Below are positions 13,590 to 59,815 of a stretch of DNA of 64,000 nt, one piece after another. Source of the stretch: Mesobacillus sp. AQ2. Its GTDB lineage: Bacteria; Bacillota; Bacilli; Bacillales; Cytobacillaceae. Under the pieces are notes generated by a model. The model worked only from the letters and a program-made list of their open reading frames with translations. It made no database searches and was not told where the DNA came from. The first letter of the stretch is position 1; the number at the start of each line of letters is the position of its first letter. The stretch is taken from the NCBI RefSeq assembly GCF_030122805.1, contig NZ_CP126080.1, forward strand, positions 1,679,001-1,743,000, written 5' to 3'. Made by a program: the position numbers and the translations under genes.

Positions 13590-14405
13590 GACAGGTTCGA
13601 CGTGAAAGCAACCGAAGGCTGTCAAAAAAAAGCCCTGGATTCAGACAGGTTTATGGTATGAGGCGGAAAAGTTGTCAAAAAACCCTCTTGATTTTGACAG
13701 GTTTGAGGGGTGAGGCGGAAAAGTTGTCAAGAAACCCTCGTGATTTTGACAGGTTCAAGGGCCGAGGCGGGAAAGCTGTCAAAAAACCCTCGTGATTTTG
13801 ACAGGTTCGAGGGGTGAGGCGGAAAAGCTGTCAAGAAACCCTCTTGATTTTGACAGGTTTGAGGGGTGAGGCGGGAAAGTTGTCAAGAAACCCTCTTGAT
13901 TTTGACAGGTTTGAGGGGTGAGGCGGAAAAGTTGTCAAGAAACCCTCGTGATTTTGACAGGTTCGAGGGCCGAGGCGGAAAAGCTGTCAAAAAACCCTCG
14001 TGATTTTGACAGGTTCAAGGGACGAGGCGGAAAAGTTGTCAAAAAAACCTCGTGATTTTGACAGGTTCGAGGGGTGAGGCGGAAAAGTTGTCAAGAAACC
14101 CTCGTGATTTTGACAGGTTCAAGGGACGAGGCGGGAAAGCTGTCAAAAAACCCTCTTGATTTTGACAGGTTCGAGGGGTGAGGCGGAAAAGCTGTCAAGA
14201 AACCCTCTTGATTTTGACCGGTTTGAGCCATGAAGCATAAAAGCTGTCAAAAAACTCTCTTGATTTTGACAGGTACGAGCCATGAAGCCTGAAAGTTGTC
14301 AAAAAAAGCTTTTAATTTTGACAGGTTCGAGCAATGAGGCCTAAAACCTGTCAAAATACCGTCTGAATTAAGACAGGTTAAGTCACAAGCTAAAAAAGCT
14401 GTCAG
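13590..14405 (+). repeat. Tandem array A: 16 units of 52 bp with internal dyads
   Basis: GACAGG (GACCGG in one unit) recurs at 13590, 13644, 13696, 13748, 13800, 13852, 13904, 13956, 14008, 14060, 14112, 14164, 14216, 14268, 14320 and 14372. The first step is 54 bp and the rest exactly 52. Each unit has TTTTGACAGG, then about 19 bases, then AAAAG(T/C)TGTCAA, so arms can pair within a unit or between neighbours. Central units are over 90% alike and the last four decay. Small ORFs across it have no ribosome site. It fills the gap between the typA run and convergent ylaI. Confidence 0.95.
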
Positions 14406-14457
14406 TACCAGACCAAAACTTAATCTTTGAAGGCACCATTTAAATATCAATCACTAA

Positions 14458-14658
14458 TCACCAGTCATCTTTCTCAACACGGCTGCGATAAAGTTTGAAA
14501 TTCCCGGTCGCAATCCGGTTGTTTGTTTTTTCGGCAATCCGCTCATTGCATGCTTCACACATATATGTATGGATCGGGCGGTTTCGGAGCCTTTTCGCCT
14601 GAAGGGTATCGCTGTTTATATTTTCGATTTTGTCGCATAATACACATTTGACTCTCAT
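14458..14658 (-). CDS. ylaI: YlaI-like zinc-ribbon protein (DUF2197)
   Basis: A 66-residue protein, MRVKCVLCDKIENINSD, with Cys pairs CVLC and CEAC separated by RNRPIHTYM. This is the pattern of YlaI/DUF2197 and suggests one zinc site. ATG at 14658 follows AGAGGTG by 6 bases; the upstream in-frame ATG at 14676 has no such site. Function unknown. Convergent with the typA run across array A. Confidence 0.88.
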   Translation of the reverse strand: MRVKCVLCDKIENINSDTLQAKRLRNRPIHTYMCEACNERIAEKTNNRIATGNFKLYRSRVEKDDW

Positions 14659-14814
14659 ACTTGCACCTCTTATCAATAATTAGCTTACATAGACAATTTG
14701 AGTTTGGATTATATTATAGTATATCATTGTTTAAAGCCGGAAAAAGGGGAATCGTTTGATTTGCCCCAAAATAACGGTTCGTAGTACTATTATGATAGTT
14801 TAAGGAGGGTGAAT

Positions 14815-15270
14815 ATGGCAAATCAAGTGGAACCAAAGCTAATTAAACCATTGGTTGATGAACTTCAAAAAGAGCGTTTTGTCACCTTGGCGACAGTGGA
14901 TCATGAGACCGGCGGACCAAATGTCAGCGCAATATCATGGGTGCTTGCTAAAGACGAAGAGATCATTTATTTCGCGGTAGATAACCGCTCTCGAATCATC
15001 GAGAACATTAAAAGCAATGACAAGGCAGTCATCAATCTGATTGCTAATGAATCTACATATTCAATCAGCGGAACGGCAAGTGTCAAGCAGGAAAAGCTTG
15101 AAGGGGTACCGTTAAAGCTGGCGTTAGTTGAAATCAGAATCAGCGAAGTCCGGGACGTCATGTTTTATGGTTCGAAAATTGTTGCAGAACCTCAATATGA
15201 CAAGACATATGATAAGGACGCCGCAGCGCGTCTCGATAAGCAAGTAATGGATGCCATGAGAAAAGCTTAG
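14815..15270 (+). CDS. Pyridoxamine 5'-phosphate oxidase-like flavin-binding protein
   Basis: A 151-residue split-barrel protein with the family's start, ERFVTLATVDHETGGPNVSAISWVLAKDE, and VDNRSRIIENIKSNDKAVINLI, the usual phosphate-binding section. Members bind FMN or F420 and include general stress protein 26-like oxidoreductases; true PdxH activity is unlikely at this length. ATG at 14815 is 4 bases after AAGGAGGGTG, which decides against GTG at 14809. It stands between ylaI (divergent) and ylaJ (convergent). Confidence 0.82.
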   Translation: MANQVEPKLIKPLVDELQKERFVTLATVDHETGGPNVSAISWVLAKDEEIIYFAVDNRSRIIENIKSNDKAVINLIANESTYSISGTASVKQEKLEGVPLKLALVEIRISEVRDVMFYGSKIVAEPQYDKTYDKDAAARLDKQVMDAMRKA

Positions 15271-15291
15271 TCAATTGACTAAGCTTTTTTT
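15261..15291. terminator. Bidirectional terminator overlapping a stop codon
   Basis: A perfect palindrome, AAAAGCTTAGTC and its complement around AATT, followed by T. It includes the stop codon of the flavin-binding protein gene and faces ylaJ. Confidence 0.9.
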
Positions 15292-15296
15292 GCGCC

Positions 15297-15884
15297 CTAT
15301 TTATGATAGTTCGACTGTTGCTCCTGATCTTTCTCCAGCTGTCTTTTCTCACCCTGATTTAGATTCTTTTTTGGATCCTCCGTCGGACTCTCCGTTTGCG
15401 GTTCGATCATGTCTGCCGGAACCTCGGGCATGACCCTTCCTGTTATATCCGCCAGCTCATTCAGGATTCCTACGATAGGCTGTCCATTTTGGATATCCTT
15501 TCCGATTTCCTTTAACCTTGCAGTAATATCCGGATCTGCCACGACTACGGCATTGGCACCATGCGGATCTTTTTTTAGAGCCTCGGCGACTGTATATTTA
15601 ACTGTATCTACTTCGGATCGCTCCATGTTATCGTTTACGTCGATTCCGACAATAGCATAACGGCCAATCACTACCGCTGCAGCATCATCAACATTCGGAA
15701 TATGTGTTGTCAAATTCACCAGATGACGGGAAATTTTCTGTCCGGATTGGCGGTCGACCCCTTGAATCGTACTATTCTGCACCTTGACCTTATGGTTTTT
15801 GTCATTATCATTTGCGCTGTTTTGTCCAGTACATGCAGTCAATAGAAAAATAAACGAGATAGCAGCAACCAATCTTATCATCAT
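15297..15884 (-). CDS. ylaJ: YhcN/YlaJ family sporulation lipoprotein
   Basis: A 195-residue lipoprotein with signal peptide MMIRLVAAISFIFLLTAC (Cys18 lipidated). The mature domain has DDAAAVVIGRYAIVGIDVND and VKYTVAEALKKDPHGANAVVVADPDI, typical of the YhcN/YlaJ family found in spore membranes, then a Pro/Glu/Gln-rich tail. Family members affect spore germination. GGAGGG lies before the ATG. Position between ylaI and ylaK matches B. subtilis. Confidence 0.88.
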   Translation of the reverse strand: MMIRLVAAISFIFLLTACTGQNSANDNDKNHKVKVQNSTIQGVDRQSGQKISRHLVNLTTHIPNVDDAAAVVIGRYAIVGIDVNDNMERSEVDTVKYTVAEALKKDPHGANAVVVADPDITARLKEIGKDIQNGQPIVGILNELADITGRVMPEVPADMIEPQTESPTEDPKKNLNQGEKRQLEKDQEQQSNYHK

Positions 15885-16066
15885 TAAATCCCTCCGGATA
15901 TTTATTCTATAAAAACCATCAATCGTTATATAAAAAAAGAAATGCTCAAAGGTTATTGTGCAAAATATCTTCTATCTTTATTCAGAAAGTCATATATTTT
16001 ACCAAAGTCCCGGCCAAGGCTGCCAAGTTGGCCAGAGCCGAGATCAAGAAGGCGGGAGGCATCAAT

Positions 16067-17407
16067 TTGAGTAAAATATATGTACTGGATACAAACGTCT
16101 TATTACAGGATCCGCACGCAATCTTTTCCTTTCAAGACAATGAAGTTGTCATACCTGCTGTAGTTCTGGAGGAAGTGGATTCAAAGAAAAGGTATATGGA
16201 TGAAATTGGGCGTAATGCACGCCAGGTTTCAAGGCTTATAGACGGAATGAGGGAAACAGGGAAACTGCATGAGAAAATCAATCTGGAAGGCGGGGGGACA
16301 CTCAGGATTGAGTTAAACCATCGTTCATTCCATCAGCTTCAGGAAATCTTCGTTGAAAAAACTAATGACAACCGCATTCTGGCAGTGGCAAAAAACCTCA
16401 GTCTTGAAGAAGAAACAAAGGAAGACGGGCGCCCGGTAATCCTGGTCAGTAAAGACGCATTGGTCCGCGTAAAAGCAGATGCGATAGGACTGATCGCTGA
16501 GGACTTCCTAAGCGATAGGGTTGTGGAAATGAATCATCTTTATTCCGGCTATGCTGAAATATATCTTGAAATTGAGGTGCTTAACCGTTTTTATGAAAAA
16601 GGGGAACTGGATTTCTCTGAATTAAAGGGACAAAACTTTTTTTATCCCAATCAATTTGTAATCATGAAGGACATTCTTGGCAGTTCGGCATCGGCCATCG
16701 CAATGGTCGATACAAAGAAGAAAAAAGTAAAAAAACTTGTATTCGAGCATGAGGGGAAACATACCTGGGGAATCCGGCCGAGAAATGTTCAGCAAATCAT
16801 GGCCATGGAATTGCTTTTACGGCAAGACATGCCTTTAATCACACTGATCGGCCGTGCGGGAACGGGTAAAACATTGCTTGCTTTAGCAACCGGTTTACTC
16901 CAGACGGAAGATTTGAATATATTTAAGAAGCTGCTTGTCGCACGGCCAATTGTACCTGTCGGAAAGGATCTCGGCTTTTTGCCGGGCGAAAAACAGGAAA
17001 AGCTCAGGCCGTGGATGCAGCCAATCTATGATAACCTCGAGTTTCTGTTCAATACGAAAAAACCGGGAGAGCTTGATGCCATCCTGGCGGGAATGGGCTC
17101 AATCGAGGTCGAAGCATTGACGTATATTAGGGGAAGAAGTATCCCGGATCAATTCATCATCATTGATGAAGCCCAGAACTTGACCAAACATGAGGTGAAA
17201 ACAATCCTCACAAGGGTAGGGGAAAGGAGCAAAATCGTCCTGATGGGCGACCCTGATCAAATCGACCATCCGTATCTGGATGCTTATAATAACGGATTGA
17301 CTTATGTTGTAGAGAAATTCAAGGATCAGCAGATTTCCGGGCATGTACAGCTCGTGAAAGGAGAAAGATCACCACTCGCCCAGCTGGCTGCAGACATCTT
17401 AAAGTAA
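16067..17407 (+). CDS. ylaK: PIN–PhoH fusion ATPase YlaK
   Basis: A 446-residue protein joining an N-terminal PIN nuclease-like domain (IYVLDTNVLLQDP at 4-16, EEVDSKKRYMDEIGRNAR) to a C-terminal PhoH-type P-loop ATPase. Walker A is GRAGTGKTLL and Walker B is FIIIDEAQN. PhoH2-type proteins are reported to unwind and cut RNA; activity here is inferred. TTG at 16067 follows GGGAGG by 6-7 bases and gives MSKIYVLDTNV as in B. subtilis YlaK; the frame is open 37 codons further but with no conserved sequence. Confidence 0.92.
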   Translation: MSKIYVLDTNVLLQDPHAIFSFQDNEVVIPAVVLEEVDSKKRYMDEIGRNARQVSRLIDGMRETGKLHEKINLEGGGTLRIELNHRSFHQLQEIFVEKTNDNRILAVAKNLSLEEETKEDGRPVILVSKDALVRVKADAIGLIAEDFLSDRVVEMNHLYSGYAEIYLEIEVLNRFYEKGELDFSELKGQNFFYPNQFVIMKDILGSSASAIAMVDTKKKKVKKLVFEHEGKHTWGIRPRNVQQIMAMELLLRQDMPLITLIGRAGTGKTLLALATGLLQTEDLNIFKKLLVARPIVPVGKDLGFLPGEKQEKLRPWMQPIYDNLEFLFNTKKPGELDAILAGMGSIEVEALTYIRGRSIPDQFIIIDEAQNLTKHEVKTILTRVGERSKIVLMGDPDQIDHPYLDAYNNGLTYVVEKFKDQQISGHVQLVKGERSPLAQLAADILK

Positions 17408-17497
17408 AGGCATTTGTAAAATCCTGCAGCGAAAGTCAGCATTACAGCAAAAATATAACGGGCACCCTGCTGGATGCCCGTTCGTGTATCTTACATA

Positions 17498-17998
17498 TCA
17501 TTCGACAGTAAATCCGGTTACATTTTTGATTGGCTGTTCCTTATTGGGGCCATCCTTGTAGTATACATGCAATGGTCCGTCTTCCCTTAATGGCTTTCCG
17601 TCCTTTGAAAAACCGAGTATGATTTCTGCTGCCTGTTCAAGAGGAATTACTGCTTGGTTGTTTTCACCGTATTCAATGACAATTTTTTTTGCATCTTGCT
17701 CGGGTTCAGCATTATCAAGAAATGGTTTAAAAGGAATTCCGAATGTACCTGTAAGGACTTTTTCTTTCTCGAATTTCACTTCAGTCTTGAGTGTCGGCGG
17801 ATAAACAGCACCTTCCATGATTTCGCGGTCCCAATGCTTGGATACCGACTTTGTATATTCTTCAAGATGATCTTCGCTTTCCTTCTCATCATTGAAATAT
17901 GTATTCAAATCCACTTTTCTGTCATCAAAAATCCATACGCCAGAGTCCAAGGTGATTTTATATTTAACTTTTCCTTTAATTGGGATGATAGTTTCCAT
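17498..17998 (-). CDS. ylaL: YlaL-like protein of unknown function
   Basis: A 166-residue soluble acidic protein (METIIPIKGKVKYKITLDSGVWIFDDRKVDL...). Strand-rich, no signal peptide, no recognised catalytic motif. The name rests on position between ylaK and ylaN. GCGGGAG precedes the ATG. The usual neighbour ylaM (glutaminase) is missing here. Confidence 0.7.
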   Translation of the reverse strand: METIIPIKGKVKYKITLDSGVWIFDDRKVDLNTYFNDEKESEDHLEEYTKSVSKHWDREIMEGAVYPPTLKTEVKFEKEKVLTGTFGIPFKPFLDNAEPEQDAKKIVIEYGENNQAVIPLEQAAEIILGFSKDGKPLREDGPLHVYYKDGPNKEQPIKNVTGFTVE

Positions 17999-18185
17999 AA
18001 TTTCTCCCGCCTTTGTTTTATATGTTATTTAATAAGTATAGCGATATTTGGAAGTAATGTCATTCAAGCTATCCCAATTGCAATAACCAATTAATTCTGC
18101 ATCCTTAATATTCTTGCATTTTTGTCCGCATAAGGGTAAAATTTATAGAAGGATTGGGTAATCGCTCGGAAACGGGGGGATCAAG

Positions 18186-18467
18186 TTGGCGTCTGATATG
18201 ATTATTAACCATCAGGAAAAAGCCCATGCCTTGTTAAAGGCTGACGCTGATAAAATTTTAAGGCTGATCAAAGTGCAAATGGATAACCTGACAATGCCTC
18301 AATGCCCTCTTTATGAAGAGGTTTTAGATACGCAAATGTTTGGATTATCAAGAGAGATAGACTTTGCAGTGAGGCTCGGCTTAATCGAAGAATCAGATGG
18401 GAAAGTAATTCTTGACCAATTGGAAAGGGAACTTTCCATTTTGCATGAAGCTTCGTTAAAAAAATAA
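18186..18467 (+). CDS. ylaN: YlaN, conserved iron-homeostasis-linked protein
   Basis: A 93-residue helical protein, nearly identical in its centre ([35 protein letters not shown], written as one motif of the family) to B. subtilis YlaN. YlaN has been linked to iron supply and to Fur in Bacillus and Staphylococcus; that is literature knowledge and not visible here. TTG start follows a GGGGGGAT ribosome site. It is monocistronic with its own terminator, directly upstream of ftsW. Confidence 0.93.
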
Positions 18468-18470
18468 CCC

Positions 18471-18511
18471 TAAAAACTCAAACAATCCTAGGATGGATGT
18501 TTGGGTTTTTT
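18471..18511 (+). terminator. Terminator after ylaN
   Basis: AAAACTCAAACA-type arm pairs with TGTTTGGGTTTT across ATCCTAGGATGGA, followed by T7. Confidence 0.8.
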
Positions 18512-18656
18512 TGTGTAACCCACATCAAGTTATTTCATTTGAACATAACAGTGATATGACTTTATTACATTTCTTTATAACTTTTCCTAAACAAAGGCAG
18601 GATATTGCAACTTATAGTAGAATAGATTAAACAACTTAGAAGATGGGGAAGAGACA

Positions 18657-19865
18657 ATGTTTAAAAAAATACTGAAATCCTATGACTATTCATTGATCAT
18701 TGCTGTAGTGCTCTTATGTTTGTTCGGACTTGTCATGGTTTACAGTGCCAGCATGGTCACTGCCATTCAAAGGTATGACTATCCAAGTGATTTTTTCTTT
18801 CAAAAACAAAAGATTAATTTGTTAGTAGCTTCTGTCTTGTTCATCCTTGCGGCATTATTCCCCTATAAAGCGATGAAAAGCACTAAATTACTGCTTCCCA
18901 TGGTCACGTTTATCCTCGGGGGGCTTGGTGCATTGTTTTTATTCGGGAAAGTGACGAACAATGCGTTAAGTTGGTTTGAACTTGGTGCAAGGAGCCTTCA
19001 GCCATCAGAATTCGCCAAATTGAGCGTTATTATTTATCTTTCTGCGGTATATGCCAAAAAACAGGCCTACATAAACCAATTCAATAAGGGAGTAGTACCG
19101 CCGCTTGTTTATTTAATCCTGGTTTGTATGCTGGTTGCCATCCAGCCAGACTTCGGTACTGCAGCGATTATTTTCGCGATCGCAGCGACAATCATCATTT
19201 CCTCAGGTATGAACCTGAGGAATATCACCAAGCTGATTTTGTTCGGACTGGCATTTTTGACCCCATTTGTTATCTTCCTTCAAGGTGAGATTTTTTCTGA
19301 AACGAGGATGGGCAGGTTTACTGCCTACAGCAATCCGTTCACTGATGAACAAAATACGGGGTATCATTTGGCCAATTCATATTATGCAATTGGCTCAGGA
19401 GGGCTGAAAGGGCTTGGGCTAGGTGAAAGTGTACAAAAGCTTGGATATCTTCCAGAGCCGCATACCGACTTCATCATTGCTGTAATCTCCGAAGAATTAG
19501 GAATCTTTGGTGTGGGATTTGTACTGCTGAGTTTAGGATTCATTGTCTTAAAAGGAATCCATATAGCGCTGAAGTGTAAAGATCCATTTGGAAGTTTGCT
19601 GGCTATTGGAATTTCGAGCATGATTGGGATCCAGTCGTTTGTCAATCTGGGCGGCGCCTCAGGAGTCATTCCATTGACAGGAGTACCGCTTCCATTTGTA
19701 AGCTATGGTGGCTCTTCATTGCTTCAGCTGGCTATAGCTACGGGGATTCTCGTCAATGTTTCAATGTTTGTTAATTACGAAGAAAAGTATAAAAAGGACA
19801 AGACATCCCAGCCAAAGCCTTCTCCGGCCATGGTCAACCAGAATGCATTCAAGTTCCGGCAGTAA
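18657..19865 (+). CDS. ftsW: Lipid II polymerase / division protein FtsW
   Basis: A 402-residue SEDS-family membrane protein with about ten transmembrane segments. It has the conserved C-terminal loop GASGVIPLTGVPLPFVSYGGSS and the extracytoplasmic GYHLANSYYAIGSGGLKGLGLG segment. It polymerises lipid II at the septum with a class B PBP (PBP2B, pbpB in this window). Identity as FtsW rather than RodA or SpoVE rests on position before ctaA. GGGGAAGAG precedes the ATG. Confidence 0.93.
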   Translation: MFKKILKSYDYSLIIAVVLLCLFGLVMVYSASMVTAIQRYDYPSDFFFQKQKINLLVASVLFILAALFPYKAMKSTKLLLPMVTFILGGLGALFLFGKVTNNALSWFELGARSLQPSEFAKLSVIIYLSAVYAKKQAYINQFNKGVVPPLVYLILVCMLVAIQPDFGTAAIIFAIAATIIISSGMNLRNITKLILFGLAFLTPFVIFLQGEIFSETRMGRFTAYSNPFTDEQNTGYHLANSYYAIGSGGLKGLGLGESVQKLGYLPEPHTDFIIAVISEELGIFGVGFVLLSLGFIVLKGIHIALKCKDPFGSLLAIGISSMIGIQSFVNLGGASGVIPLTGVPLPFVSYGGSSLLQLAIATGILVNVSMFVNYEEKYKKDKTSQPKPSPAMVNQNAFKFRQ

Positions 19866-19874
19866 TATAAAACA

Positions 19875-19909
19875 AAAGAAGCTGCAGCGATTGCTGCAGC
19901 TTCTTATTT
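19875..19909. terminator. Bidirectional terminator between ftsW and ctaA
   Basis: AAGAAGCTGCAGC pairs perfectly with GCTGCAGCTTCTT across 4 bases. The ctaA stop codon lies in the right flank. Confidence 0.92.
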
Positions 19910-20860
19910 TACAGTTGCCGGAGAAAGGTCTGCGGCTGTAGGTTTCTCTACTCTTGCGGCATTTTTCTTGCTTCTTGAAACTAGAAGGATGAAGTAGCTG
20001 AACACACCAAACAGTACTGATATGAAGAATGCGTGCGCCAGAGCGATATACAAATTCAGTCTGGTATAAATAATCAGCGCACCCGCGGTCACCTGAAGTG
20101 AAACCAGTATCATGGAGATGATCCAGCCCCAGTATAATACTCTCTCATGTTTGTAATGTTTTACGGTGATATATGTTACGTAGGCAATCCAGATAAAAAT
20201 GAATCCCGCTGCTGCCCTGTGGCCCATCTGAACCCATTCATACAGGTTTGTAGGCAGGAAAGAACCGTCATTCGTGCATAATGGCCAGTCCTTACAGACC
20301 AGGCTTGCGTTCATATGTCTTACCAGAGCTCCCGTATAGACGACAATATAGCTATATACCGCCAGTCCGATGATATGGAACCTCATTCTTTTATCGATCA
20401 CTAATTTATCAGCCTCGAATTTCTTATCTACCTCAAAAATAAGCATGGTCAATAATAGAACAGCTGCAAAAGAAATGAGTGAAATGCCAAAGTGAAGCGC
20501 GAGAACAAAATCAGATTGGCCCCAAACGACAGCGGCAGCGCCAATCAAAGCCTGAAGAACCAAAAAGAAAAATGATAAAACTGCCAGGAACTTCGTTTCA
20601 CGGATGTGTCCGATTGTTTTCCAAGTCCAAATGGATAAAACCAGAACCATGATGCCGACACTACCGGAAACCAATCGGTGGGCCAGTTCTATTACCAATT
20701 CCGGTGTTATGCTGGTGGGAACAAACACTCCATTGCATAGTGGCCAGGATTTCCCACAGCCCATTCCGGAATCAGTTTTAGTAACCAGTGCTCCCCCTAA
20801 TAAAACAAAAAGCATCCCAATCGTGGTCAAAACAGCAAGCCACTTTAGGGAACGATTCAT
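19904..20860 (-). CDS. ctaA: Heme A synthase
   Basis: A 318-residue membrane enzyme with eight transmembrane segments in two related halves. It converts heme O to heme A for the caa3 and aa3 oxidases. Conserved histidines appear in [27 protein letters not shown] and ALAHAFFI, and extracytoplasmic cysteine pairs in CGKSWPLC and CKDWPLC. The ATG at 20860 gives [13 protein letters not shown] and follows AGGTGAT; the frame continues upstream without conservation. Divergent from ctaB, as in B. subtilis. Confidence 0.94.
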
Positions 20861-22402: not shown

Positions 22403-22502
22403 CCTTCGTTAGGAGATTCACTCTTTGATGAGAGAGGATTTTTCCATATATTTTAAAACCAAATTAATAAGATTTTTTACGAAAGAGGGGTTTAATTAAG
22501 CT

Positions 22503-34106: not shown

Positions 34107-34905
34107 GTGATCTTTCTGAGAAAACTGTCCGAACCAGAGGCACCTTTGGACAGCTTTTGTGGTTATCGTTGAAAAGCAGTCTGAACTGGAGGCGAGTTCG
34201 GACAACTTTTGTGGTTATCGTTGAAAATCTGTCCGAACTAGAGTCACCTTCAGACAACTTTTGTGCTTCCAGGTGAAAATCTGTCCGAACTAGAGTCACC
34301 TTCGGACAACTTTTGTGCTTACAGGTGAGAAGCTGTCCGAACTTGAGGTTACTTCAGACAACTTTCGTGGTTACGGTAGAAAAGCTGTCCGAACCAGAGT
34401 CACACTCGGACAACTTTGGTGCTTACAGGCGAAAAGCTGTCCGAACTGGAGGTTACTTCGGACAACTTTCGTGGTTACGGTAGAAAAGCTGTCCGAACTA
34501 GAGTCACCTTCGGACAACTTTTGTGCTTCCAGGTGAAAAGCTGTCCGAACTAGAGTCACCTTCGGACAACTTTTGTGCTTCCAGGTGAAAAGCTGTCCGA
34601 ACCAGAGTCACCTTTGGACAGCTTTTGTGGTTATTGTTGAAAAGCAGTCTGAACTGGAGTCACCTTCGGACACCTTTTGTGCTTCCAGGTGAAAAGCTGT
34701 CTGAACTGGAGGTTACTTCGGACAACTTTTGTGGTTACGGTAGAAAAGCTGTCCGAACTAGAGTCATCTTCGGACAACTTTTGTGGTTACGGTAGAAAAG
34801 CTGTCCGAACCCGAGGCAACCCTTCAGACAGCTTTCGTGCTAACCGAAGAAAAGCTGTCTAAACTAGAGACTACTTGTGTCCACTATTGTGCAAACAGAC
34901 ACAAT
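34107..34905 (-). repeat. Tandem array B: 15 units of 52 bp, inverted relative to arrays A and C
   Basis: TGTCCGAA (or close variants) recurs at 34126, 34178, 34230, 34282, 34334, 34386, 34438, 34490, 34542, 34594, 34646, 34698, 34750, 34802 and 34856. Every step is 52 except the last (54). The unit on this strand is AAAAGCTGTCCGAA, 11 bases, TTCGGACAACTTTT, 13 bases. Its reverse complement is the array C unit. Blocks of several units are duplicated internally. ORFs across it have no ribosome sites. Degenerate copies continue to about 34905. Confidence 0.95.
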
Positions 34906-38171: not shown

Positions 38172-38280
38172 TTTTATTTCCCCTTCCGGCTTATCACTCC
38201 ATCATACTTTACCATTTGCAGCCTTATATTTGAAGCATTCCTCTCTTTCTTCGTTTTTGATATTTAATTAAAACAAAAAC

Positions 38281-38440
38281 AAAGCCTTGAACCATTCAGG
38301 CTCAAGGCTTCCTTCCATGCACCGCAATAGTGCTGAAGGCAAAGGGAGAGGAGAAACCGGAGGAAAACTTATGGGGAAACGTAAGTCTTCTCCGCGGTTG
38401 GCAACAACATCCTCAAATTGATGTTGTTAATCTTTATTAT
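38281..38440 (+). ncRNA. ylbH leader RNA motif
   Basis: The 386 bases before rsmD/ylbH hold no gene but have a structured leader. There is a stem AAGCCTTGA/TCAAGGCTT (38282-38310), a purine-rich conserved-looking core (GAAGGCAAAGGGAGAGGAGA at 38334-38353), a GGAGGAAAACTTATGGGG section, and a final stem AACAACATC/GATGTTGTT (38403-38428) followed by AATCTTTATT. This matches the place and look of the ylbH RNA motif described upstream of ylbH in Bacillus. Ligand, if any, is unknown. Boundaries are approximate. Confidence 0.7.
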
Positions 38441-51527: not shown

Positions 51528-51692
51528 TTGGACGTCTAGAAATTATATGAAAAATCCTTAATCCTTTCTTCCTAAGTGGCATTTGTTTCTGCTAAAATAT
51601 GACTAAAGATCTTACTATTGATTACACATGTGATAGATTTTCAGGAGATGCACAAGTTGAGGGTGTGCTGACTCCTTCAATGAGGGGTTTTT

Positions 51693-52978: not shown

Positions 52979-52983
52979 CCCGA

Positions 52984-53018
52984 TGTTGGACCGTCTCTTC
53001 GAAGGTCCAGCATTTTTT
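52984..53018 (+). terminator. Terminator after the DUF3397 gene
   Basis: TGTTGGACC pairs with GGTCCAGCA (one wobble) across 10 bases, then six T. Confidence 0.85.
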
Positions 53019-53150
53019 GATTTCTGCAAACCGAACGTAGCAAAAGCCTGCTACACCGAAATTAACCAAGGGTAGGGCAGCTTCTATTCAAAAAAACCTT
53101 GATTTTAGAAATTTCGAAAGGCAAAGTTTTTTTCTTTTCAATTCAAACAA

Positions 53151-53159
53151 TGCTATACT
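53151..53159 (+). promoter_or_regulatory. Extended -10 promoter of bshC
   Basis: TGCTATACT, 42 bases before the ATG; no clear -35. Confidence 0.5.
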
Positions 53160-53201
53160 CATTACAGTGAAAATTGTTAACGAGAAAGGAAGTACGAGTT
53201 A

Positions 53202-54836
53202 ATGGAGATGTTGAATCTCTCACTTCCGGCTGCGAACCGGTTTGCGACAGATTACCTTGCTGGGAGCCCTGAACTTCAGAGGTTCTTTCATTATAATTTT
53301 ACAGACGAAAATTCATATATTCATCGCCTTGATGAATTGAAAAATAGAAGTTTCATGAGACAAGAACTTGCCGACCATATTCAGACATTCATGTCCAGAT
53401 ATGCGGAGTCTGATCGAATTGCTGAGAATATCGGGAAACTCAGGAAGGAAAACAGCGTTGCGGTTATCGGCGGCCAGCAGGCGGGTATCCTGACCGGGCC
53501 GCTTTATACGATCCATAAAGTGATTTCAATTATCAAGCTGGCTGAACAGAAAGAGCAGGAGCTTGGCGTCCCGGTGGTACCGGTATTTTGGATTGCGGGT
53601 GAAGACCATGACTACCAGGAAGTCAATCATGTTTATGTCATGAAGGACAACAGGCAGGAGAAATGGGTCTACCCGGAAAAGAATCTCGAGAAAAAAATGA
53701 TTTCCGAAGTGTGTATCAACCGGGACCTGTGTTATTCCTGGGTTGAGGAAATCATTGAAACCTACGGCGAAACAAAACACACGAAAGAAGTATTATCCTT
53801 TGCCCTGGAATCCTTGAAGAAAGCGGAATCCTTCGTGGACTTTTTTGCCACGATCATTATGGAGCTTTTCAAGGATTCAGGCCTGCTGATTGTTGATTCA
53901 GGGAATAAAGAGCTGCGCAAGCTTGAAAAAGAATATTTTATCAATCAAATTAAAAATCATCGTGAAACCACTTCCGCAGTCCTTGGCCAGCAAGAAAAGA
54001 CCAAAGCGGCAGGCTTTTCTAATATGATTGATATCAATGAAAATACGGCGAACCTGTTCTTTTATGATGAACAGGTAAATGAACGTATCTTGCTTCAATT
54101 TGACCCACAAAGTGGAGGGTTTGCAGGTAAAAATGGCGAAGTCAGCTTCACATATGATGAACTGATGGAGATTGCGAATGAGTTTCCGGAAAAACTCAGC
54201 AATAATGTCGTGACCCGTCCGTTAATGCAAGAATGGCTTTTCCCGACGCTTGCCTTCATTGGAGGTCCTGGAGAAATTGCCTACTGGGCAGAGCTGAAAC
54301 TTGTCTTCGAGCATTTCGGTGTCCGGATGCCTCCGCTTGTCCCAAGACTGAATATCACCTTATTGGAAAGATCGATTGAATCTGACCTGAACGAATTGAA
54401 ATTGGATCTAAAAGAAGTGTTGATTTCAGGCACAAGCGGACATGAACTAAAATTCATCGACTCACTGAAGGATCGGGAAGTAGAAGAGTTATTCGGTAAG
54501 GTTAAAGGGATGCTGTCAGATCAATATCATCTCATCCGTGAAAAATCAAACGGAATCGATCCGGTATTATTGCCAATGCTGCAAAAGAACGAATCAATCC
54601 TGCTGAATCAAATTAAGTTCATGGAGGATAAAATTGTAGAGGCAATCTGCCAAAAAAATGACCATATCCTTCGAAAGTTCTCTAGAGTGGAGAATGCACT
54701 AAGACCAGGCGGGGCGCCACAAGAAAGAGTATGGAATCCTTTCTATTACCTGAATAAGTATGGTTTGGAACTAGTTCCGGAATTATTAAAGCTGCAGTAT
54801 AGGTTCGATGGAACCCATAAAATCATAAAACTATAA
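53202..54836 (+). CDS. bshC: Bacillithiol synthase (cysteine-adding enzyme) BshC
   Basis: A 544-residue enzyme (yllA) that joins cysteine to glucosaminyl-malate in the last step of bacillithiol synthesis. Conserved GGQQAGILTGPLYTIHK (about 93-109), WIAGEDHDYQEVNHVY and FPTLAFIGGPGEIAYWAELK are present, along with a C-terminal coiled coil (about 380-480). Position between panE and mraZ matches B. subtilis. GAAAGGAAG precedes the ATG. Confidence 0.95.
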   Translation: MEMLNLSLPAANRFATDYLAGSPELQRFFHYNFTDENSYIHRLDELKNRSFMRQELADHIQTFMSRYAESDRIAENIGKLRKENSVAVIGGQQAGILTGPLYTIHKVISIIKLAEQKEQELGVPVVPVFWIAGEDHDYQEVNHVYVMKDNRQEKWVYPEKNLEKKMISEVCINRDLCYSWVEEIIETYGETKHTKEVLSFALESLKKAESFVDFFATIIMELFKDSGLLIVDSGNKELRKLEKEYFINQIKNHRETTSAVLGQQEKTKAAGFSNMIDINENTANLFFYDEQVNERILLQFDPQSGGFAGKNGEVSFTYDELMEIANEFPEKLSNNVVTRPLMQEWLFPTLAFIGGPGEIAYWAELKLVFEHFGVRMPPLVPRLNITLLERSIESDLNELKLDLKEVLISGTSGHELKFIDSLKDREVEELFGKVKGMLSDQYHLIREKSNGIDPVLLPMLQKNESILLNQIKFMEDKIVEAICQKNDHILRKFSRVENALRPGGAPQERVWNPFYYLNKYGLELVPELLKLQYRFDGTHKIIKL

Positions 54837-54840
54837 AATT

Positions 54841-54873
54841 GAGCTCCATCCTTTTCGGATGGGGCTTTTTTTC
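54841..54873 (+). terminator. Terminator after bshC
   Basis: AGCTCCATCC pairs with GGATGGGGCT (one wobble) across TTTTC, then T7. Confidence 0.9.
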
Positions 54874-54897
54874 GTTCGGGGGTAGTTTCAAAATACG

Positions 54898-55023
54898 GGT
54901 GAAAGTGCAATTTTTACAGGTGTTGGTGCAATTATTTAGGGTGAAGGTTCAATTGTCGAGGGTGACAGTGCAATTATTTAGGGTGAAGGTTCAATTGTCG
55001 AGGGTGACAGTGCAATTACTATT
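54898..55023 (+). repeat. Six tandem 21-bp repeats between bshC and mraZ
   Basis: Units begin at 54898, 54919, 54940, 54961, 54982 and 55003, each exactly 21 bases. The pattern is GGTG, a variable AAR/TTG/ACA, GTKCAATT, then a variable end often TTTAG or GTCGAG. Units 3 and 5 are identical (GGTGAAGGTTCAATTGTCGA plus G), and units 4 and 6 share their first 16 bases. Being a multiple of three, the repeat keeps an open frame of heptads, but no ribosome site or plausible start serves it. Confidence 0.92.
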
Positions 55024-55130
55024 ACTATTGATTTCAGTGCAATTAATGGTTCCTGTTGTTCATTGGCAGTCTTCGATTGTCTATCAACTGGCAATTAAAA
55101 ATATAAAAAAGTAAGAAATAACAAAGGAAT

Positions 55131-55158
55131 TTGGGTTGGTGGAGAGAATATTTAAAAT
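55131..55158 (+). promoter_or_regulatory. Promoter of the mraZ/dcw operon
   Basis: TTGGGT (55131-55136), 16-base spacer, TAAAAT (55153-55158); start predicted near 55165, inside the MraZ boxes. Confidence 0.55.
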
Positions 55159-55160
55159 AA

Positions 55161-55185
55161 GGTGGTGAAAAGTGGGGGAATGTGG
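55161..55185 (+). promoter_or_regulatory. MraZ operator: three GTGG boxes 10 bp apart
   Basis: GTGG occurs at 55162, 55172 and 55182, exactly 10 bases apart, overlapping the predicted transcription start. Two more copies follow at 55203 and 55212. MraZ binds direct repeats with TGGG or GTG cores about 10 bases apart upstream of its own gene in E. coli and Mycoplasma, so autorepression is likely. Confidence 0.75.
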
Positions 55186-55216
55186 TACATTGTATTTAGA
55201 AAGTGGGGGTAGTGGC

Positions 55217-55648
55217 ATGTTCATGGGTGAATACCATCATAATGTGGATAGCAAAGGACGATTGATCATCCCTGCCAAGGTCCGTGAAAATCTTGGAGAA
55301 ATGTTCATTCTTACCCGTGGACTTGACCAGTGTTTATTTGGTTACCCCGTTTCTGAATGGTCAGTGATCGAAGAAAAACTTAAAGGACTTCCGCTGACTA
55401 AAAAAGATGCACGTGCATTTACCCGTTTTTTCTTTTCGGGTGCTACCGAGAGTGAAATTGACAAACAGGGGAGAGTCAATATTCCTTCCCCGCTGATGCA
55501 ATACGCCAAGCTTGAGAAAGAATGTGTGATTTTAGGTGTTTCCAATCGAATTGAAATTTGGAGCAAAGCCATCTGGGAAGAATATTTCGCAGAATCTGAG
55601 GAATCTTTTGCTGAAATTGCGGAAAATATGATTGGATTTGATATTTAA
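55217..55648 (+). CDS. mraZ: Transcriptional regulator MraZ
   Basis: A 143-residue DNA-binding protein with two SpoVT/AbrB-like domains: [25 protein letters not shown] and the repeat [16 protein letters not shown]. It regulates the dcw cluster, usually as a ring-shaped oligomer on repeated GTGG boxes. ATG at 55217 is supported by family length; the frame is open upstream to 55172. First gene of the dcw operon. Confidence 0.95.
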
Positions 55649-55705
55649 GGGTAACATTATTCTGATATAATATTACCTGCTCCTCGATTGGAAAGGTGGA
55701 TCATG

Positions 55706-56644
55706 ATGTTCAAACATACAACAGTTTTACTGGAAGAAACAGTAGACGGGCTCAATATCAAGCCTGACGGTACATACGTGGATTGCACTCTCGGTGGCGC
55801 AGGCCACAGTGAATTGATTTTGTCCAGGCTTTCGGAAAAAGGAAAGCTATATGCATTTGACCAGGACGATGTCGCGATTGCAAATGCGAAAGAAAAGCTT
55901 GCAGCTTACGGCGACAGGCTGACAATCATTAAAAGTAATTTTCTTTATCTGCAGGACGAGCTTGAAAAATTGGGTGTAAAAGAAGTTGATGGGATTCTAT
56001 ATGATTTGGGAGTTTCCTCACCGCAGCTAGATACTCCGGAACGCGGCTTCAGCTACCACCACGATGCTCCGCTCGATATGCGGATGGACCAGGATGCAGC
56101 ATTGTCCGCTTACGATGTCATTAATGAATGGCCATATGAAAAATTGGTCAAAATCTTTTTCCAGTACGGAGAAGAGAAATTCTCAAAACAAATTGCCCGC
56201 AAAATCGAGGCCGCAAGGGAAAACAAGCCGATTGAGACCACTAGTGAACTGGTCGAGTTGATTAAAGATGCAATTCCTGCACCTGCAAGGAGAAAAGGCG
56301 GCCATCCCGCCAAAAGGGTTTTCCAGGCAGTCAGGATCGCGGTAAATGATGAACTTGGTGTTTTTGAAAAGTCACTGGAGCAGGCAATCGAACTTTTATC
56401 CGTAGGAGGAAGGATCAGTGTCATCACCTTCCACTCACTCGAAGACAGGATTTGTAAGGTAACCTTGAAAAAAGCGAGCGAAACACCGCCGCTTCCACCA
56501 GGTCTGCCAATCATTCCGGATGAGTTTCAGCCTAAATTGAAGCTGATTACTAGAAAACCAATCCTTCCGTCCGAGGAAGAGCTCGAGTTCAATAACCGGG
56601 CAAGATCGGCAAAACTGCGGATAGCTGAAAAAGTAAAAAACTAA
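55706..56644 (+). CDS. rsmH: 16S rRNA (cytosine1402-N4)-methyltransferase RsmH
   Basis: A 312-residue SAM-dependent methyltransferase (mraW). [16 protein letters not shown] opens the protein; SAM motif [26 protein letters not shown] with ERGFSY, and [20 protein letters not shown] with [12 protein letters not shown] are hallmarks. Two adjacent ATGs exist (55703 and 55706); the second is 6 bases from AAGGTGG. Confidence 0.96.
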
Positions 56645-56678
56645 AAATAAAAATATAAAATTTTCAGGAGGGAAAATG

Positions 56679-57047
56679 ATGAGCAATCTGGCTACAAAAT
56701 TGCAGCAGGAACAGCAGCATCGTACAGTTCAGGCACCAGCAAAAGCACCGGTAAAAGCACCTGCGAAAAGAAATTCGATTTTAACGCCCGGTGAAAAAAT
56801 CCTGATGTTTGTCTTCGGAGCAATCGTATGCTTCGGCGCAACATTCATGGTATCAAAACAGGCAGCCATTTATGAAGTCAACAAAGAAATCCAGATTATT
56901 GAAGGCGATATTCAGGAGCAGCAAAAGGTTAATAGTGACCTTGAAGTCCAGATTAGCGAATTAAGTACCTATGAAAGAATCAAAAAGGTGACAGAAAAGC
57001 TCGGCCTAACATTGAATGAAAACAATGTTAAAGGTGTGGAAAACTGA
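56679..57047 (+). CDS. ftsL: Cell division protein FtsL
   Basis: A 122-residue bitopic membrane protein: cytoplasmic Gln/Lys/Ala-Pro-rich tail with APAKAPVKAPAK repeats, one membrane helix (ILMFVFGAIVCFGATFMV, about 42-60) and an external coiled coil (KEIQIIEGDIQEQQKVNSDLEVQI). It works with DivIC and DivIB to activate FtsW-PBP2B. CAGGAGGG precedes two adjacent ATGs; 56679 is better spaced. Overlaps pbpB by one base (TGATG). Confidence 0.92.
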   Translation: MSNLATKLQQEQQHRTVQAPAKAPVKAPAKRNSILTPGEKILMFVFGAIVCFGATFMVSKQAAIYEVNKEIQIIEGDIQEQQKVNSDLEVQISELSTYERIKKVTEKLGLTLNENNVKGVEN

Positions 57048-59257
57048 TGATCAAGAAACAGCCAAATATGAATGCAGGAGCAGCGGTATTATTCGTAATA
57101 TTCAGCCTGCTCTTTTTTATCTTGATTTTCAGGTTTGTCTCCATCCAGGTCACAGGTGAAGTTCATGGACAAGCACTGGCAGCAAGAGCGCAGCAGAAAT
57201 ATTCCAATGAGAAAGTCATCGAGGCTGTCAGAGGCACGATTTTTGACCGCAAAGGCGAAGTAGTTGCGGAAGACACCACTTCCTATACGCTCGTCGCCAT
57301 CCTTGATGAATCGGTGACAACGAATAAAAAGAAGCCGAAACATGTTAAAGACCCGGCAAAAACAGCCGCTGTACTGGCGAAGTATATCGATATGAGCGAG
57401 TCGGATATATACAAGAGACTTACAAAAGATGGGGCATGGCAGGTTGAATTCGGAAAGGCCGGCCGTGATATTACCCACCAGACCAAGCGGGAAATAGAAG
57501 AGGAAAAGCTGCCGGGAATTACTTTTTTACGAGATTCAAAGCGATTCTATCCAAATGGTATATTTTCATCACATTTAGTGGGCTTTGTTGAGAATGAAGA
57601 AACAGAGGATCACAAAACATTTACTACTGGCAAGCTAGGTGTAGAAAAAACATTAAATGATGAATTGACTGGTGAAAATGGGTCGATTTCCTTTAAAAGT
57701 GATTTATGGGGTTTCCTTCTTCCAGGTGCAGAAGAAAAAGTAACTCCTGCAAAAGATGGCGATGATATTTACCTGACGATTGATAAAAAAATCCAGACTT
57801 TTGTTGAGGATGCCGTCGATCGAGTTGATAAGGAATATAAGCCTAAAAAAATTCTGGCTGTCGTTGCTGACCCTAAAACCGGCGAAATACTTGCAATGGC
57901 CCAGCGTCCTACATTCCACCCTACTACAAGGGATGGGTTAGATAAAAGCTGGCATAACGAGATTGTTGAAACACCGATCGAACCGGGATCGACGATGAAG
58001 ATTTTTACATTAGCAGCGGCAATTGAGGAAAATAAGTGGAATCCAGGAGAATACTATAAATCTGGTTCCTATAAAGTTACTGAGAACTCGGTTCCTATTG
58101 GAGATCATAATAAGCGGCAGGGATGGGGAACGATTACTTATCTGGAAGGTATACAGCGATCCTCAAATGTTGCGGTTGCAAAGCTTGTTAATGAAAAAAT
58201 CGGTACGGATAAATTCCGGGAATACTTGACTGAATTTGGTTTTGATCAGCCGACTGGCATTGACCTCCCAAACGAAGCTGTGGGTAAAATTCAGTATAAA
58301 TGGCCAGTTGAAAAAGTAACGGTCTCTTATGGCCAGGGATCGACGTTTACACCTATTCAATTAATCCAGGCCGCATCCGCCGTTGCAAATGACGGCACCA
58401 TGATGAAGCCTAAAGTAATTGATAAAATAGTTGACCCGAACACTGGTAAAATAGTGAAACAAACTGAACCCGAGGCAGTTGGCAAGCCGATATCAGCTGA
58501 AACAGCCAAAGAGGTTCGCGATGTACTTGAAACAGTTATTACCTCGGAGCATGGTACGGGTAAATCATATGCAATTGATGGTTATAAGATTGCCGGGAAA
58601 ACAGGCACTGCCAACCTTACCGAAAATGGTAAATATCTTAATGGGCCTAGCGACTATCTATTCTCATTCCTCGGCATGGCTCCAAAAGATGATCCCAAGC
58701 TGATTGTGTACGTTGCGGTCCAACAGCCTGAAATTGACCACTATTTCAAAGGTTCGATTCCAACATCGATGATTTTCAAATCAGTGATGCAAAGCAGTCT
58801 TCAGTATCTGAATATAAAGCCTGCTTCCATGGAAAAGGCTGATTCAAGTTCTGTACCGGATGTAACCGGGATGGAAACTGGTGAAGCAAAGAAGCTGCTT
58901 GAGTCCAAAGGGTTTGAGACCGTAGTCATTGGTGATGGGAATCAGGTGGAAGAACAATTGCCAAACGCTGATATAGTCTCTCTAGAAGGAGAAAAAATCA
59001 TTATAAAAGCTTCAGGCACCATGACATATCCGGATCTTACAGACTGGTCGCTAAGGGATGTCATGAAGCTCACCCAACTAACTGGGGTTAAGCTAAATAA
59101 AGCCGGTAGCGGATATGTGACAAAACAGAGCCTGAAACCAGGCTTGCCGATCAATGAAGGAGAAAATCTTATTGTTCAGCTCGAAACACCGCTGCAGCAA
59201 TTCGAGAACTCCTTAAAAAAAGAAGATAGTGAGGAAACAGAGGAAGTTGGCGGCTGA
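57047..59257 (+). CDS. pbpB: Septal transpeptidase PBP2B
   Basis: A 736-residue class B penicillin-binding protein: membrane anchor (about 12-31), PBP dimer domain (about 60-230), and transpeptidase domain with active-site STMK (Ser315-Lys318), SSN (372-374) and KTGT (518-521). Two PASTA-like domains (about 600-720) and an acidic tail follow. It crosslinks septal peptidoglycan with FtsW. The ATG shares a base with the ftsL stop. Array C begins 60-70 bases past its stop. Confidence 0.95.
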   Translation: MIKKQPNMNAGAAVLFVIFSLLFFILIFRFVSIQVTGEVHGQALAARAQQKYSNEKVIEAVRGTIFDRKGEVVAEDTTSYTLVAILDESVTTNKKKPKHVKDPAKTAAVLAKYIDMSESDIYKRLTKDGAWQVEFGKAGRDITHQTKREIEEEKLPGITFLRDSKRFYPNGIFSSHLVGFVENEETEDHKTFTTGKLGVEKTLNDELTGENGSISFKSDLWGFLLPGAEEKVTPAKDGDDIYLTIDKKIQTFVEDAVDRVDKEYKPKKILAVVADPKTGEILAMAQRPTFHPTTRDGLDKSWHNEIVETPIEPGSTMKIFTLAAAIEENKWNPGEYYKSGSYKVTENSVPIGDHNKRQGWGTITYLEGIQRSSNVAVAKLVNEKIGTDKFREYLTEFGFDQPTGIDLPNEAVGKIQYKWPVEKVTVSYGQGSTFTPIQLIQAASAVANDGTMMKPKVIDKIVDPNTGKIVKQTEPEAVGKPISAETAKEVRDVLETVITSEHGTGKSYAIDGYKIAGKTGTANLTENGKYLNGPSDYLFSFLGMAPKDDPKLIVYVAVQQPEIDHYFKGSIPTSMIFKSVMQSSLQYLNIKPASMEKADSSSVPDVTGMETGEAKKLLESKGFETVVIGDGNQVEEQLPNADIVSLEGEKIIIKASGTMTYPDLTDWSLRDVMKLTQLTGVKLNKAGSGYVTKQSLKPGLPINEGENLIVQLETPLQQFENSLKKEDSEETEEVGG

Positions 59258-59276
59258 GCCCTTCCTCTGTTTTTTT
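59235..59276 (+). terminator. Terminator overlapping the end of pbpB
   Basis: AAACAGAGGAAG pairs perfectly with CTTCCTCTGTTT across 14 bases that include the stop codon; long T-run follows. Confidence 0.9.
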
Positions 59277-59316
59277 TTTGAGGACTGTTTGAAGCGATCA
59301 GATAAAACCAAACCGG

Positions 59317-59815
59317 GCAATCACGGAAATTGTCCGAAGCAGCCTCAGGTTCGGACAGCTTTTCAACGGTAAACGAGAAAGTTGTCCGAAGCAGCCTCAG
59401 GTTCGGACAGCTTTTCGTCGGTAAGCACAAAAGTTGTCCGAAGCAGCCACAAGTTCGGACAGCTTTTCGCGAGTAAGCACAAAAGTTGTCCGAAGCAGCC
59501 ACAGGTTTGGACAGCTTTTCACTGGTAAGCACAAAAGTTGTCCGAAGCAGCTACAAGTTCGGACAGCTTTTCACTTGTAAGTACAAAAGTTGTCCGAAGC
59601 AGCCACAGGTTCGGACAGCTTTTCACGGGTAAGCACAAAAGTTGTCCGAAGCAGCCACAAGTTCGGACAGCTTTTCGCCTGAAAGCACAAAAACTGTCTG
59701 AAGTAGCCTCCAGTTCTGTCAGCTTTTCAACGGTAAGCACGAAAGTTGTCCGAAGCAGCCGCAAGTTCGGACAGCTTTTCGCGAGTAAGCACGAAAGTTG
59801 TCCGAAGTAACTTCA
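59317..59815 (+). repeat. Tandem array C: 10 units of exactly 52 bp
   Basis: TGTCCGAAG (TGTCTGAAG once) occurs at 59331, 59383, 59435, 59487, 59539, 59591, 59643, 59695, 59747 and 59799, always 52 bases apart. The unit is AAAAGTTGTCCGAA, 11 bases (GCAGCCACAGG type), TTCGGACAGCTTTT, 13 bases (CACGGGTAAGCAC type). The two 14-base arms are complementary except for one wobble. It separates pbpB from spoVD, which adjoin closely in B. subtilis. Open frames across it lack ribosome sites. Confidence 0.96.

What the first reader, a model, noticed from the sequence alone, without database searches (positions are those of the whole stretch)
13590..59815. One family of 52-bp dyad arrays occurs three times with the same geometry
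Arrays A (13590-14405), B (34107-34905) and C (59317-59815) differ in sequence but share a skeleton. The period is 52 bp, and a GACA half-site and a TGTC half-site alternate 29 and 23 bp apart (centre to centre) in all three. In B and C the unit is exactly 14-base arm, 11-base loop, 14-base complementary arm, 13-base loop. Array A shares GACAG, GGGTRAG and AAAAGTTGTC with C. 52 bp is close to five helical turns, and 23/29 bp are near two and three, so the half-sites fall roughly on one DNA face. This could be a phased protein-binding array or a chain of RNA hairpins. I know of no named family with this design; no search was possible.
Basis: partly seen in the sequence, partly recalled or inferred. 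Interest (0 to 1): 0.85.

Follow-up and report, generated by a model that had tools for sequence, protein, structure and literature searches.

The report
Nuclease-paired 52-bp DNA repeat arrays
The three repeat arrays belong to a published but unexplained class of 52-base-pair bacterial repeats, and this work finds that a family of predicted DNA-cutting (NERD) proteins usually carries a matching array right behind its own genes, giving these repeats a first candidate partner that can be tested.

Summary
Arrays A, B and C are chains of a 27-bp dyad (TGTC-N19-GACA) at exact 52-bp steps. The size class is in print: Subirana & Messeguer 2021 (PMC8161180) describe 52-nt and 20-21-nt repeats of constant length and variable sequence, and report no evidence for a Cas-like partner.

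New here, as far as my searches reach: a partner. NERD/zinc-ribbon/winged-helix genes (predicted PD-(D/E)XK nucleases) have a 51-53-bp array 2-310 bp after the stop codon in 58 of 64 cases, against 22 of 562 ordinary ORFs. Array sequence tracks protein sequence across genera (rho 0.60). Six such genes in this genome head the classes to which 21 of 29 sampled arrays belong; A matches one class, B and C another. A second NERD clade has 20/21-bp repeats instead. Mismatch counts show no RNA-strand bias.

Best reading: DNA-level, helically phased target arrays of cognate NERD nucleases, comparable to REP/RAYT pairs but with an unrelated enzyme. The pairing is strongly supported. Binding, cutting and spreading are inferred.

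The parts
13590..14405 (.). Array A: 14 chained TGTC-N19-GACA dyads (13673-14375) plus degenerate edge units; arm class TGTCAAAA/TTTTGACA; same class as the array behind NERD gene N325 (G000:C1:2907194)
   Evidence: class by unit similarity 0.75 v shuffle maximum 0.50
34107..34905 (.). Array B: 13 chained dyads (34126-34776) plus edge units; arm class TGTCCGAA/TTCGGACA; same class as the array behind NERD gene N320 (G000:C1:1548118)
   Evidence: similarity 0.65 v shuffle maximum 0.50
59317..59825 (.). Array C: 10 chained dyads (59331-59825) between the two penicillin-binding-protein genes 57047-59257 and 59934-61904 (pbpB and spoVD by recall of the B. subtilis gene order); class N320
   Evidence: similarity 0.67 v shuffle maximum 0.52; orthologous gap compared in 21 genus genomes
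54897..55018 (.). 21-bp repeat with GTGCAATT core, of the 20/21-bp class; by eye the same core recurs behind the clade-II NERD gene L349 of this genome. Possible relative of the second system; it lies inside ORF 54839-55114, so a coding repeat is not excluded
   Evidence: weak by score (0.57, 8-mer match)

Best explanation
Arrays A, B and C are dispersed copies of 52-bp dyad satellites. A reference copy of each satellite lies directly behind a gene for a cognate NERD / zinc-ribbon / winged-helix protein. SHOWN (statistically): the gene-array linkage, array classes matched to paralogs, co-variation of protein and array across genera, fixed 52-bp step, intact PD-(D/E)XK-type residues. INFERRED: each paralog binds its own 25-27-bp dyad in double-stranded DNA as a dimer (two 10-bp half-sites around 7 bp), and five-turn spacing lets dimers stack in phase. 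INFERRED, less certain: the nuclease nicks or cuts its array DNA, and repair or copying of those breaks keeps the arrays tandem and spreads them between genes, as RAYT enzymes are thought to do for REP palindromes. My separate odds: genuine pairing 0.92; sequence-specific dsDNA binding 0.75; nuclease action on the arrays as the cause of their upkeep and spread 0.45.
For: 58 of 64 clade-I NERD genes have a 51-53-bp array (54 exactly 52) starting 2-310 bp (median 61) after the stop and 1 of 64 has one upstream. Baseline in this genome at the same TRF score: 22 of 562 ORFs downstream, 15 upstream (Fisher p 4e-56). All 12 genes of 164 bits or more in five genomes, including 6 in this one, have one (11 of these are in the 64). 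21 of 29 sampled 50-54-bp arrays of this genome match one of the six NERD-adjacent units above all 30 shuffles; each of the six classes has at least one dispersed copy and no sampled array is itself the NERD-adjacent one. Mantel test, 1470 cross-genus pairs: rho 0.60, permutation maximum 0.27. Outside the family, 54 of 57 genomes with TGTC arrays have a clade-I NERD (E<1e-60) v 75 of 324 without. Clade switch: 20/21-type repeats lie upstream of 25 and downstream of 8 of 34 clade-II genes (28 of 34 on either side; baseline 10 and 22 of 563), 50-54-bp repeats at 1. E42, Q72, D74, D/E87-x-K89 and four cysteines are near-invariant in 185 clade-I sequences. The model (pLDDT 92.8) aligns to nucleases and a winged helix. 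DNA rather than RNA level.
Confidence: 0.6

Rival explanations
1. Structural or regulatory arrays: the NERD protein is mainly a DNA-binding, nucleoid-organising or regulatory factor that polymerises on phased arrays; its nuclease fold does not act on them.
For: Spacing near whole helical turns in both clades (52 and 20/21 bp). Constant length with changing sequence. Dispersal in gaps between genes without clear preference for gene orientation. Subirana & Messeguer propose such a polymerising protein.
Against: Catalytic-type residues are near-invariant in 185 sequences, which a purely structural role would not need. Arrays are absent or down to 2-3 units at the same site in several sister species, so this one array is not needed there. 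Clade-I arrays mostly lie behind, not before, their own gene.
Confidence: 0.27
2. Self-marking for defence: the dispersed arrays tell a NERD nuclease that DNA is self, so that DNA without them is restricted.
For: Predicted nuclease; arrays are frequent (29 of the 50-54-bp class in 844 kb); weak profile matches to MAD6 and PglW defence proteins.
Against: Those matches are far below cut-off or weak, and probably reflect the shared domain. Several paralogs with different targets per genome are not needed for marking. No defence partner genes were looked for.
Confidence: 0.08
3. RNA-level chain of hairpins (small RNA or 3' UTR elements).
For: Arms are complementary; Subirana & Messeguer report transcription in B. 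coagulans; NERD-linked arrays could be transcribed from the gene.
Against: G.T versus A.C mismatches are balanced at unit level (221 v 223), by array consensus in sense (28 v 24) and in arrays of known sense (165 v 182). No Rfam match over the arrays. An exact 52-nt step has no obvious use in RNA.
Confidence: 0.04
4. Coincidence: neutral satellites and NERD genes both collect in variable intergenic regions.
For: Array sites turn over.
Against: Linkage is 58/64 v 22/562, one-sided (downstream), clade-specific in period, and co-varying in sequence.
Confidence: 0.01

Closest known systems
52-nt and 20-21-nt constant-size, variable-sequence tandem repeats of Bacillus (Subirana & Messeguer 2021, PMC8161180)
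   Same: Same repeat sizes (51-53 and 20-21), several sequence families per genome, 52 class in Firmicutes, short motifs often present with their reverse in one repeat, partial turnover. H. coagulans 36D1 (they studied B. coagulans strains in detail) has one clade-I NERD gene with a 52-bp array behind it.
   Different: [quoted passage not shown] The dyad geometry (10-bp arms, 7-bp centre, N19/N25), the NERD pairing and the two-clade/two-period rule are not in the parts read (parts 1-4 of 5).
REP palindromes and RAYT transposases (Di Nocera 2013, PMC3733652, abstract and section list seen)
   Same: Short palindromes with a conserved tetranucleotide, many extragenic copies, an enzyme gene flanked by its own repeats, several families per genome.
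   Different: Enzyme is a NERD protein, not a Y1 tyrosine transposase; no GTAG/CGTC tag; strict tandem arrays at 52 bp; array nearly always on the downstream side only.
CRISPR arrays
   Same: Palindromic repeat alternating with a fixed-length spacer beside a nuclease gene.
   Different: Spacers are repeated, not unique; many arrays per genome; no Cas match beyond weak Cas10 hits.
NERD-domain proteins (PF08378)
   Same: Clear Pfam matches above cut-off, with the conserved catalytic-type residues.
   Different: No earlier link to repeats found; a 2022 paper says the NERD domain had not been studied in any bacterial protein (PMC9040797, passages).

Membership tests
52-nt constant-size tandem repeats (Subirana & Messeguer) | repeat length 51-53 nt, nearly constant | tested here: met
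   1166 of 1236 steps are 52 in skeleton-selected loci; 25 of 52 tandem arrays (periods 15-87) in the motif-blind sample are exactly 52
52-nt constant-size tandem repeats (Subirana & Messeguer) | several sequence families of the same length per genome | tested here: met
   six classes matched in this genome, eight further arrays unmatched
52-nt constant-size tandem repeats (Subirana & Messeguer) | only partly conserved between strains and relatives | tested here: met
   chains of 2-17 units in 14 and none in 7 of 21 genomes of the genus at the pbpB-spoVD gap, two of the gaps cut by contig ends
REP/RAYT | GTAG or CGTC tag beside the palindrome | tested here: not met
   conserved core is TGTC/GACA or other tetramers
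REP/RAYT | cognate Y1 tyrosine transposase gene | tested here: not met
   the linked gene is NERD PF08378 with no Y1_Tnp match; Y1 transposases elsewhere in the genome were not searched
REP/RAYT | enzyme gene flanked by its own repeat family, which is also dispersed | tested here: met
CRISPR | unique spacers between repeats | tested here: not met
   spacers repeat within each array
NERD (PF08378) | Pfam match above gathering score | tested here: met
   46.8-70 bits v cut-off 22.1 in five proteins
NERD (PF08378) | PD-(D/E)XK-type nuclease fold (recalled as the domain's assigned fold) | tested here: inconclusive
   [not shown]
Rfam RNA families | match to a curated model | tested here: not met
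   no match over the arrays up to E = 1

The most novel reading that the evidence does not exclude
A previously unrecognised class of genetic system: nuclease-satellite pairs. Lineages of NERD nucleases each build, keep and disperse their own phased satellite. One clade uses dyads at five helical turns placed behind the gene, the other short motifs at two turns placed mostly in front. Together they would account for most non-coding tandem repeats of many Bacillales genomes, and the pair would co-diversify so that each paralog recognises only its own repeat.
Probability: 0.5. Interest if true: 0.95.

Novelty: new variant of a known kind. Interest (0 to 1): 0.85.

Why it matters
A published puzzle, why some Bacillales carry many tandem repeats of one fixed length and unrelated sequence, gets its first concrete candidate partner and a simple prediction: each NERD paralog recognises its own repeat. 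If true, it links an uncharacterised nuclease family to satellite DNA in bacteria, explains two repeat lengths by two protein clades, and offers a natural set of paired nucleases and palindromes from which target recognition could be read.

Tried and rejected
RNA hairpin chain: three mismatch-balance tests gave no strand bias, and Rfam gave nothing over the arrays. Mutational arm repair (template switching): pairing stops sharply after 10 bp and is at or below expectation in the centre, which unchecked arm correction would not predict; not formally excluded. A hairpin kept by compensation within arrays: only 58 cells changed on both sides, against 853 departing from Watson-Crick pairing (221 G.T, 223 A.C, 409 other), so within-array selection on pairing looks weak; this favours recognition of double-stranded half-sites. 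3'-end or promoter role: flanking gene orientations (89 tandem, 38 convergent, 20 divergent of 147 classifiable arrays; 41 of 188 were at an edge or inside an ORF) do not differ clearly from gaps of 300 bp or more in this genome (84, 26, 23), with crude ORF calls. Spacer following the resident NERD array at one site: not significant. My first pattern had the two gaps swapped. Cluster 0 proved to be frames running through the arrays, and was dropped; three other large clusters were set aside as common paralog families by reading their sequences, not by a search.

The NERD-array counts use TRF (score 40 or more) within 400 bp. The first baseline used score 50; repeated at score 40 it was the same, 22 of 562. 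The six misses were counted as misses, although L306 and L365 show diverged dyads by eye, L299 shows a 104-bp period and L309 ends 212 bp after the gene. Three partial matches below 164 bits (L328, L331, L332) were not examined.

The 2020 J. Bacteriol. paper by the same authors is not held, so a partner named there cannot be excluded; the 2019 paper gave no relevant passage. 'Not in print' rests on searches only.
Full report
CHECK OF THE OBSERVATION. The skeleton TGTC-N19-GACA-N25-TGTC, one mismatch allowed, gives 71 matches in the window against 0.18 in shuffles. A, B and C are unbroken chains of 14, 13 and 10 units at exactly 52 bp. To avoid circularity I took 39 roughly evenly spaced 20-kb stretches of the same genome plus the window (844 kb) and looked for tandem repeats without any motif. 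The period histogram (52 arrays) has 25 at 52, two at 53, one each at 51, 54, 60, 87 and 40, five at 20, twelve at 21, and three of 15-18. TGTC and GACA are associated only at gaps 19 and 25.

HOW WIDE IT IS. This genome has 535 two-unit matches, and the reversed-pattern control has none. In the family 136 of 193 genomes have at least one; in the order 69 of 397 sampled genomes and 30 of 135 genera. The window genus is probably Mesobacillus (inferred from similar arrays in named records, not told by a tool).

ANATOMY. Across 153 array consensuses from other genomes, pairs 5 to 10 counted inward from the TGTC end are complementary in 56-84% of arrays against 29-44% expected, with all four pair types. 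The three central pairs are at or below expectation. Outside the dyad the first pair is raised (49% v 32%) and the fourth slightly (41% v 31%). So the unit is a 27-bp dyad, two 10-bp arms around 7 bp, followed by a 25-bp spacer of almost free sequence. In this genome's own 35 arrays the excess is clear only for pairs 5-8 and weaker at pair 10. The arrays for this test were found by the TGTC skeleton, so the constancy of the first four pairs is by construction. Arrays with other cores and the same period exist in the motif-blind sample and behind many NERD genes.

A PARTNER GENE. I clustered 953 ORFs from 157 array loci. Apart from frames that run through arrays (15 loci) and families that I read as common paralogs (chemoreceptors, ABC transporters, short-chain dehydrogenases), the stand-out family, nine loci, was a roughly 302-residue NERD protein; in eight of the nine the array follows the gene's 3' end, in one (L204) it precedes the gene. 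Searching with one such protein: 183 of 193 family genomes have homologs, usually several, at E up to 1e-10, a threshold that also admits the second clade. I examined 64 clade-I genes: the 30 best family loci, 11 of the 12 copies of 164 bits or more in five genomes, and 23 best order loci. 58 have a 51-53-bp array within 400 bp downstream and 1 upstream. The array starts at a median of 61 bp after the stop (range 2-310), with a median of 11.6 copies; 54 arrays are exactly 52 bp. The baseline in this genome, at the same TRF score, is 22 of 562 ORFs of 150 aa or more downstream and 15 upstream. In seven named records not among the 64, 16 of 26 examined copies (of 31 matches) qualify: 11 of 14 in Bacillales, including the single copy of H. 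coagulans 36D1, and 5 of 12 in Trichococcus and a record titled Sedimentibacter. In 299 phylum-wide genomes clade I was found at E 1e-30 only in two, both in the window's order; yet it is present in the Trichococcus record, so outside the order it is rare rather than absent.

ONE PARALOG, ONE ARRAY CLASS. This genome has six clade-I genes, each followed by a different 52/53-bp palindrome. Of 29 arrays of period 50-54 in the motif-blind 844 kb, 21 match one of the six units better than all 30 shuffles, and each of the six classes has at least one dispersed copy, including the 53-bp class; eight match none. Window array A falls in the class of the gene at C1:2907194, B and C in that of C1:1548118. 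Over 58 gene-array pairs, protein identity and unit similarity correlate across genera (1470 pairs, rho 0.60; 2000 permutations, maximum 0.27). Mean unit similarity rises from 0.42 (shuffled level 0.41) at 35-45% protein identity to 0.53 above 65%.

PRESENCE AND ABSENCE. Outside the window's family, 54 of 57 order genomes with TGTC arrays have a clade-I NERD at E below 1e-60, against 75 of 324 without. The lists were copied by hand; genomes not printed were counted as lacking it; only about five candidates per genome were scored; relatedness is not corrected for. The three exceptions are G193, G266 and G527.

SECOND CLADE, SECOND PERIOD. Distant homologs with the same NERD plus four-cysteine layout (query L346) were examined at 34 loci, 30 (about half from the window's genus, so not independent) and four more from this genome. 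25 have 20-21-bp-type repeats (periods 19-22, 40-43 or 61-63) within 600 bp upstream and 8 downstream, 28 on either side; 1 has a 50-54-bp repeat. The baseline in this genome is 10 of 563 ORFs upstream and 22 downstream. Several dispersed 20/21-bp arrays of this genome resemble a unit beside one of these genes. Both periods are close to whole numbers of helical turns (five and two).

PROTEIN. E42, Q72, D74, D/E87-x-K89, Q117 and the four cysteines are near-invariant in 185 clade-I sequences and, but for one residue at 87, invariant in 30 clade-II sequences. The AlphaFold model has mean pLDDT 92.8 and pTM 0.85. The best structural rows include many PD-(D/E)XK nucleases and nickases, identified by recall (Can2/Card1, PspGI, McrC, Nt.BspD6I, the R2 endonuclease), and residues 240-302 align with winged-helix proteins; scores are modest. 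Pfam finds NERD above cut-off and only weak zinc-ribbon and other matches. No PDB sequence matches beyond a zinc-ribbon stretch at E 0.06.

DNA OR RNA. If the hairpin worked as RNA, G.U should be tolerated more than A.C on the sense strand. Counts are 221 v 223 over all units, 28 v 24 in sense by array consensus, and 165 v 182 in arrays behind a NERD gene. Units within an array are not independent. Together with the exact five-turn step this favours a DNA-level role. Within arrays, changes on both sides of a pair are rare (58 cells against 853 that depart from Watson-Crick pairing), which fits half-site recognition better than a conserved cruciform.

TURNOVER. At the pbpB-spoVD gap in 21 genomes of the genus, 14 have chains of 2-17 units and 7 none; G000 has 10 and its conspecific G075 has chains of 5 and 2. 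For two genomes the gap is cut by a contig end. The 27-bp dyad is similar across species while the 25-bp spacer comes in two unrelated versions; a test whether the spacer follows the resident NERD array was not significant (p 0.13).

LITERATURE. Subirana & Messeguer 2021 (PMC8161180; parts 1-4 of 5 of the text read) describe two constant sizes, 52 and 20-21 nt, in Bacillus. [quoted passage not shown] Their 2021 satellite-transcription paper (passages) and 2019 survey (passages) name no partner in what I saw; their 2020 paper is not held. The NERD papers opened (passages) do not mention such repeats there. The repeats are therefore known; the pairing appears new within these searches.

JUDGEMENT. 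The pairing of NERD genes and phased arrays is well supported and answers an open question with a testable partner. What the protein does to the arrays is inference; a nuclease that maintains and spreads its own targets, as in REP/RAYT, is my first choice, and a structural DNA-binding role the main rival.

Noticed in passing
window 54897-55018: 21-bp repeat with GTGCAATT core, resembling by eye the repeat behind clade-II NERD gene L349 (G000:C1:4286168); it overlaps a 91-aa ORF.
   Followed up: partly
window 38275-38397 and 4620-4835: Rfam matches to the ylbH leader (RF00516) and the SR1 sRNA (RF02376), both above gathering score.
   Followed up: no
L343 (G000:C1:3372856-3373521): The clade-I NERD copy behind the CCAATA array class looks broken: the match stops at residue 223 and the rest seems to continue in another frame.
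   Followed up: no
G088 pbpB-spoVD gap (L275): Holds a different repeat family (TGTCTAGCTCCAGCGCC...) in place of the 52-bp array, so the gap may attract several repeat types.
   Followed up: no
L111, L161, L181, L182 and L143: Records titled Chryseobacterium sp. ISL-80 and Sedimentibacter sp. SX930 carry Bacillaceae- or Trichococcus-like arrays; the titles look misassigned.
   Followed up: no
L220:8989-9379: A 52-bp array without a clear dyad and without a matching NERD class in this genome.
   Followed up: no
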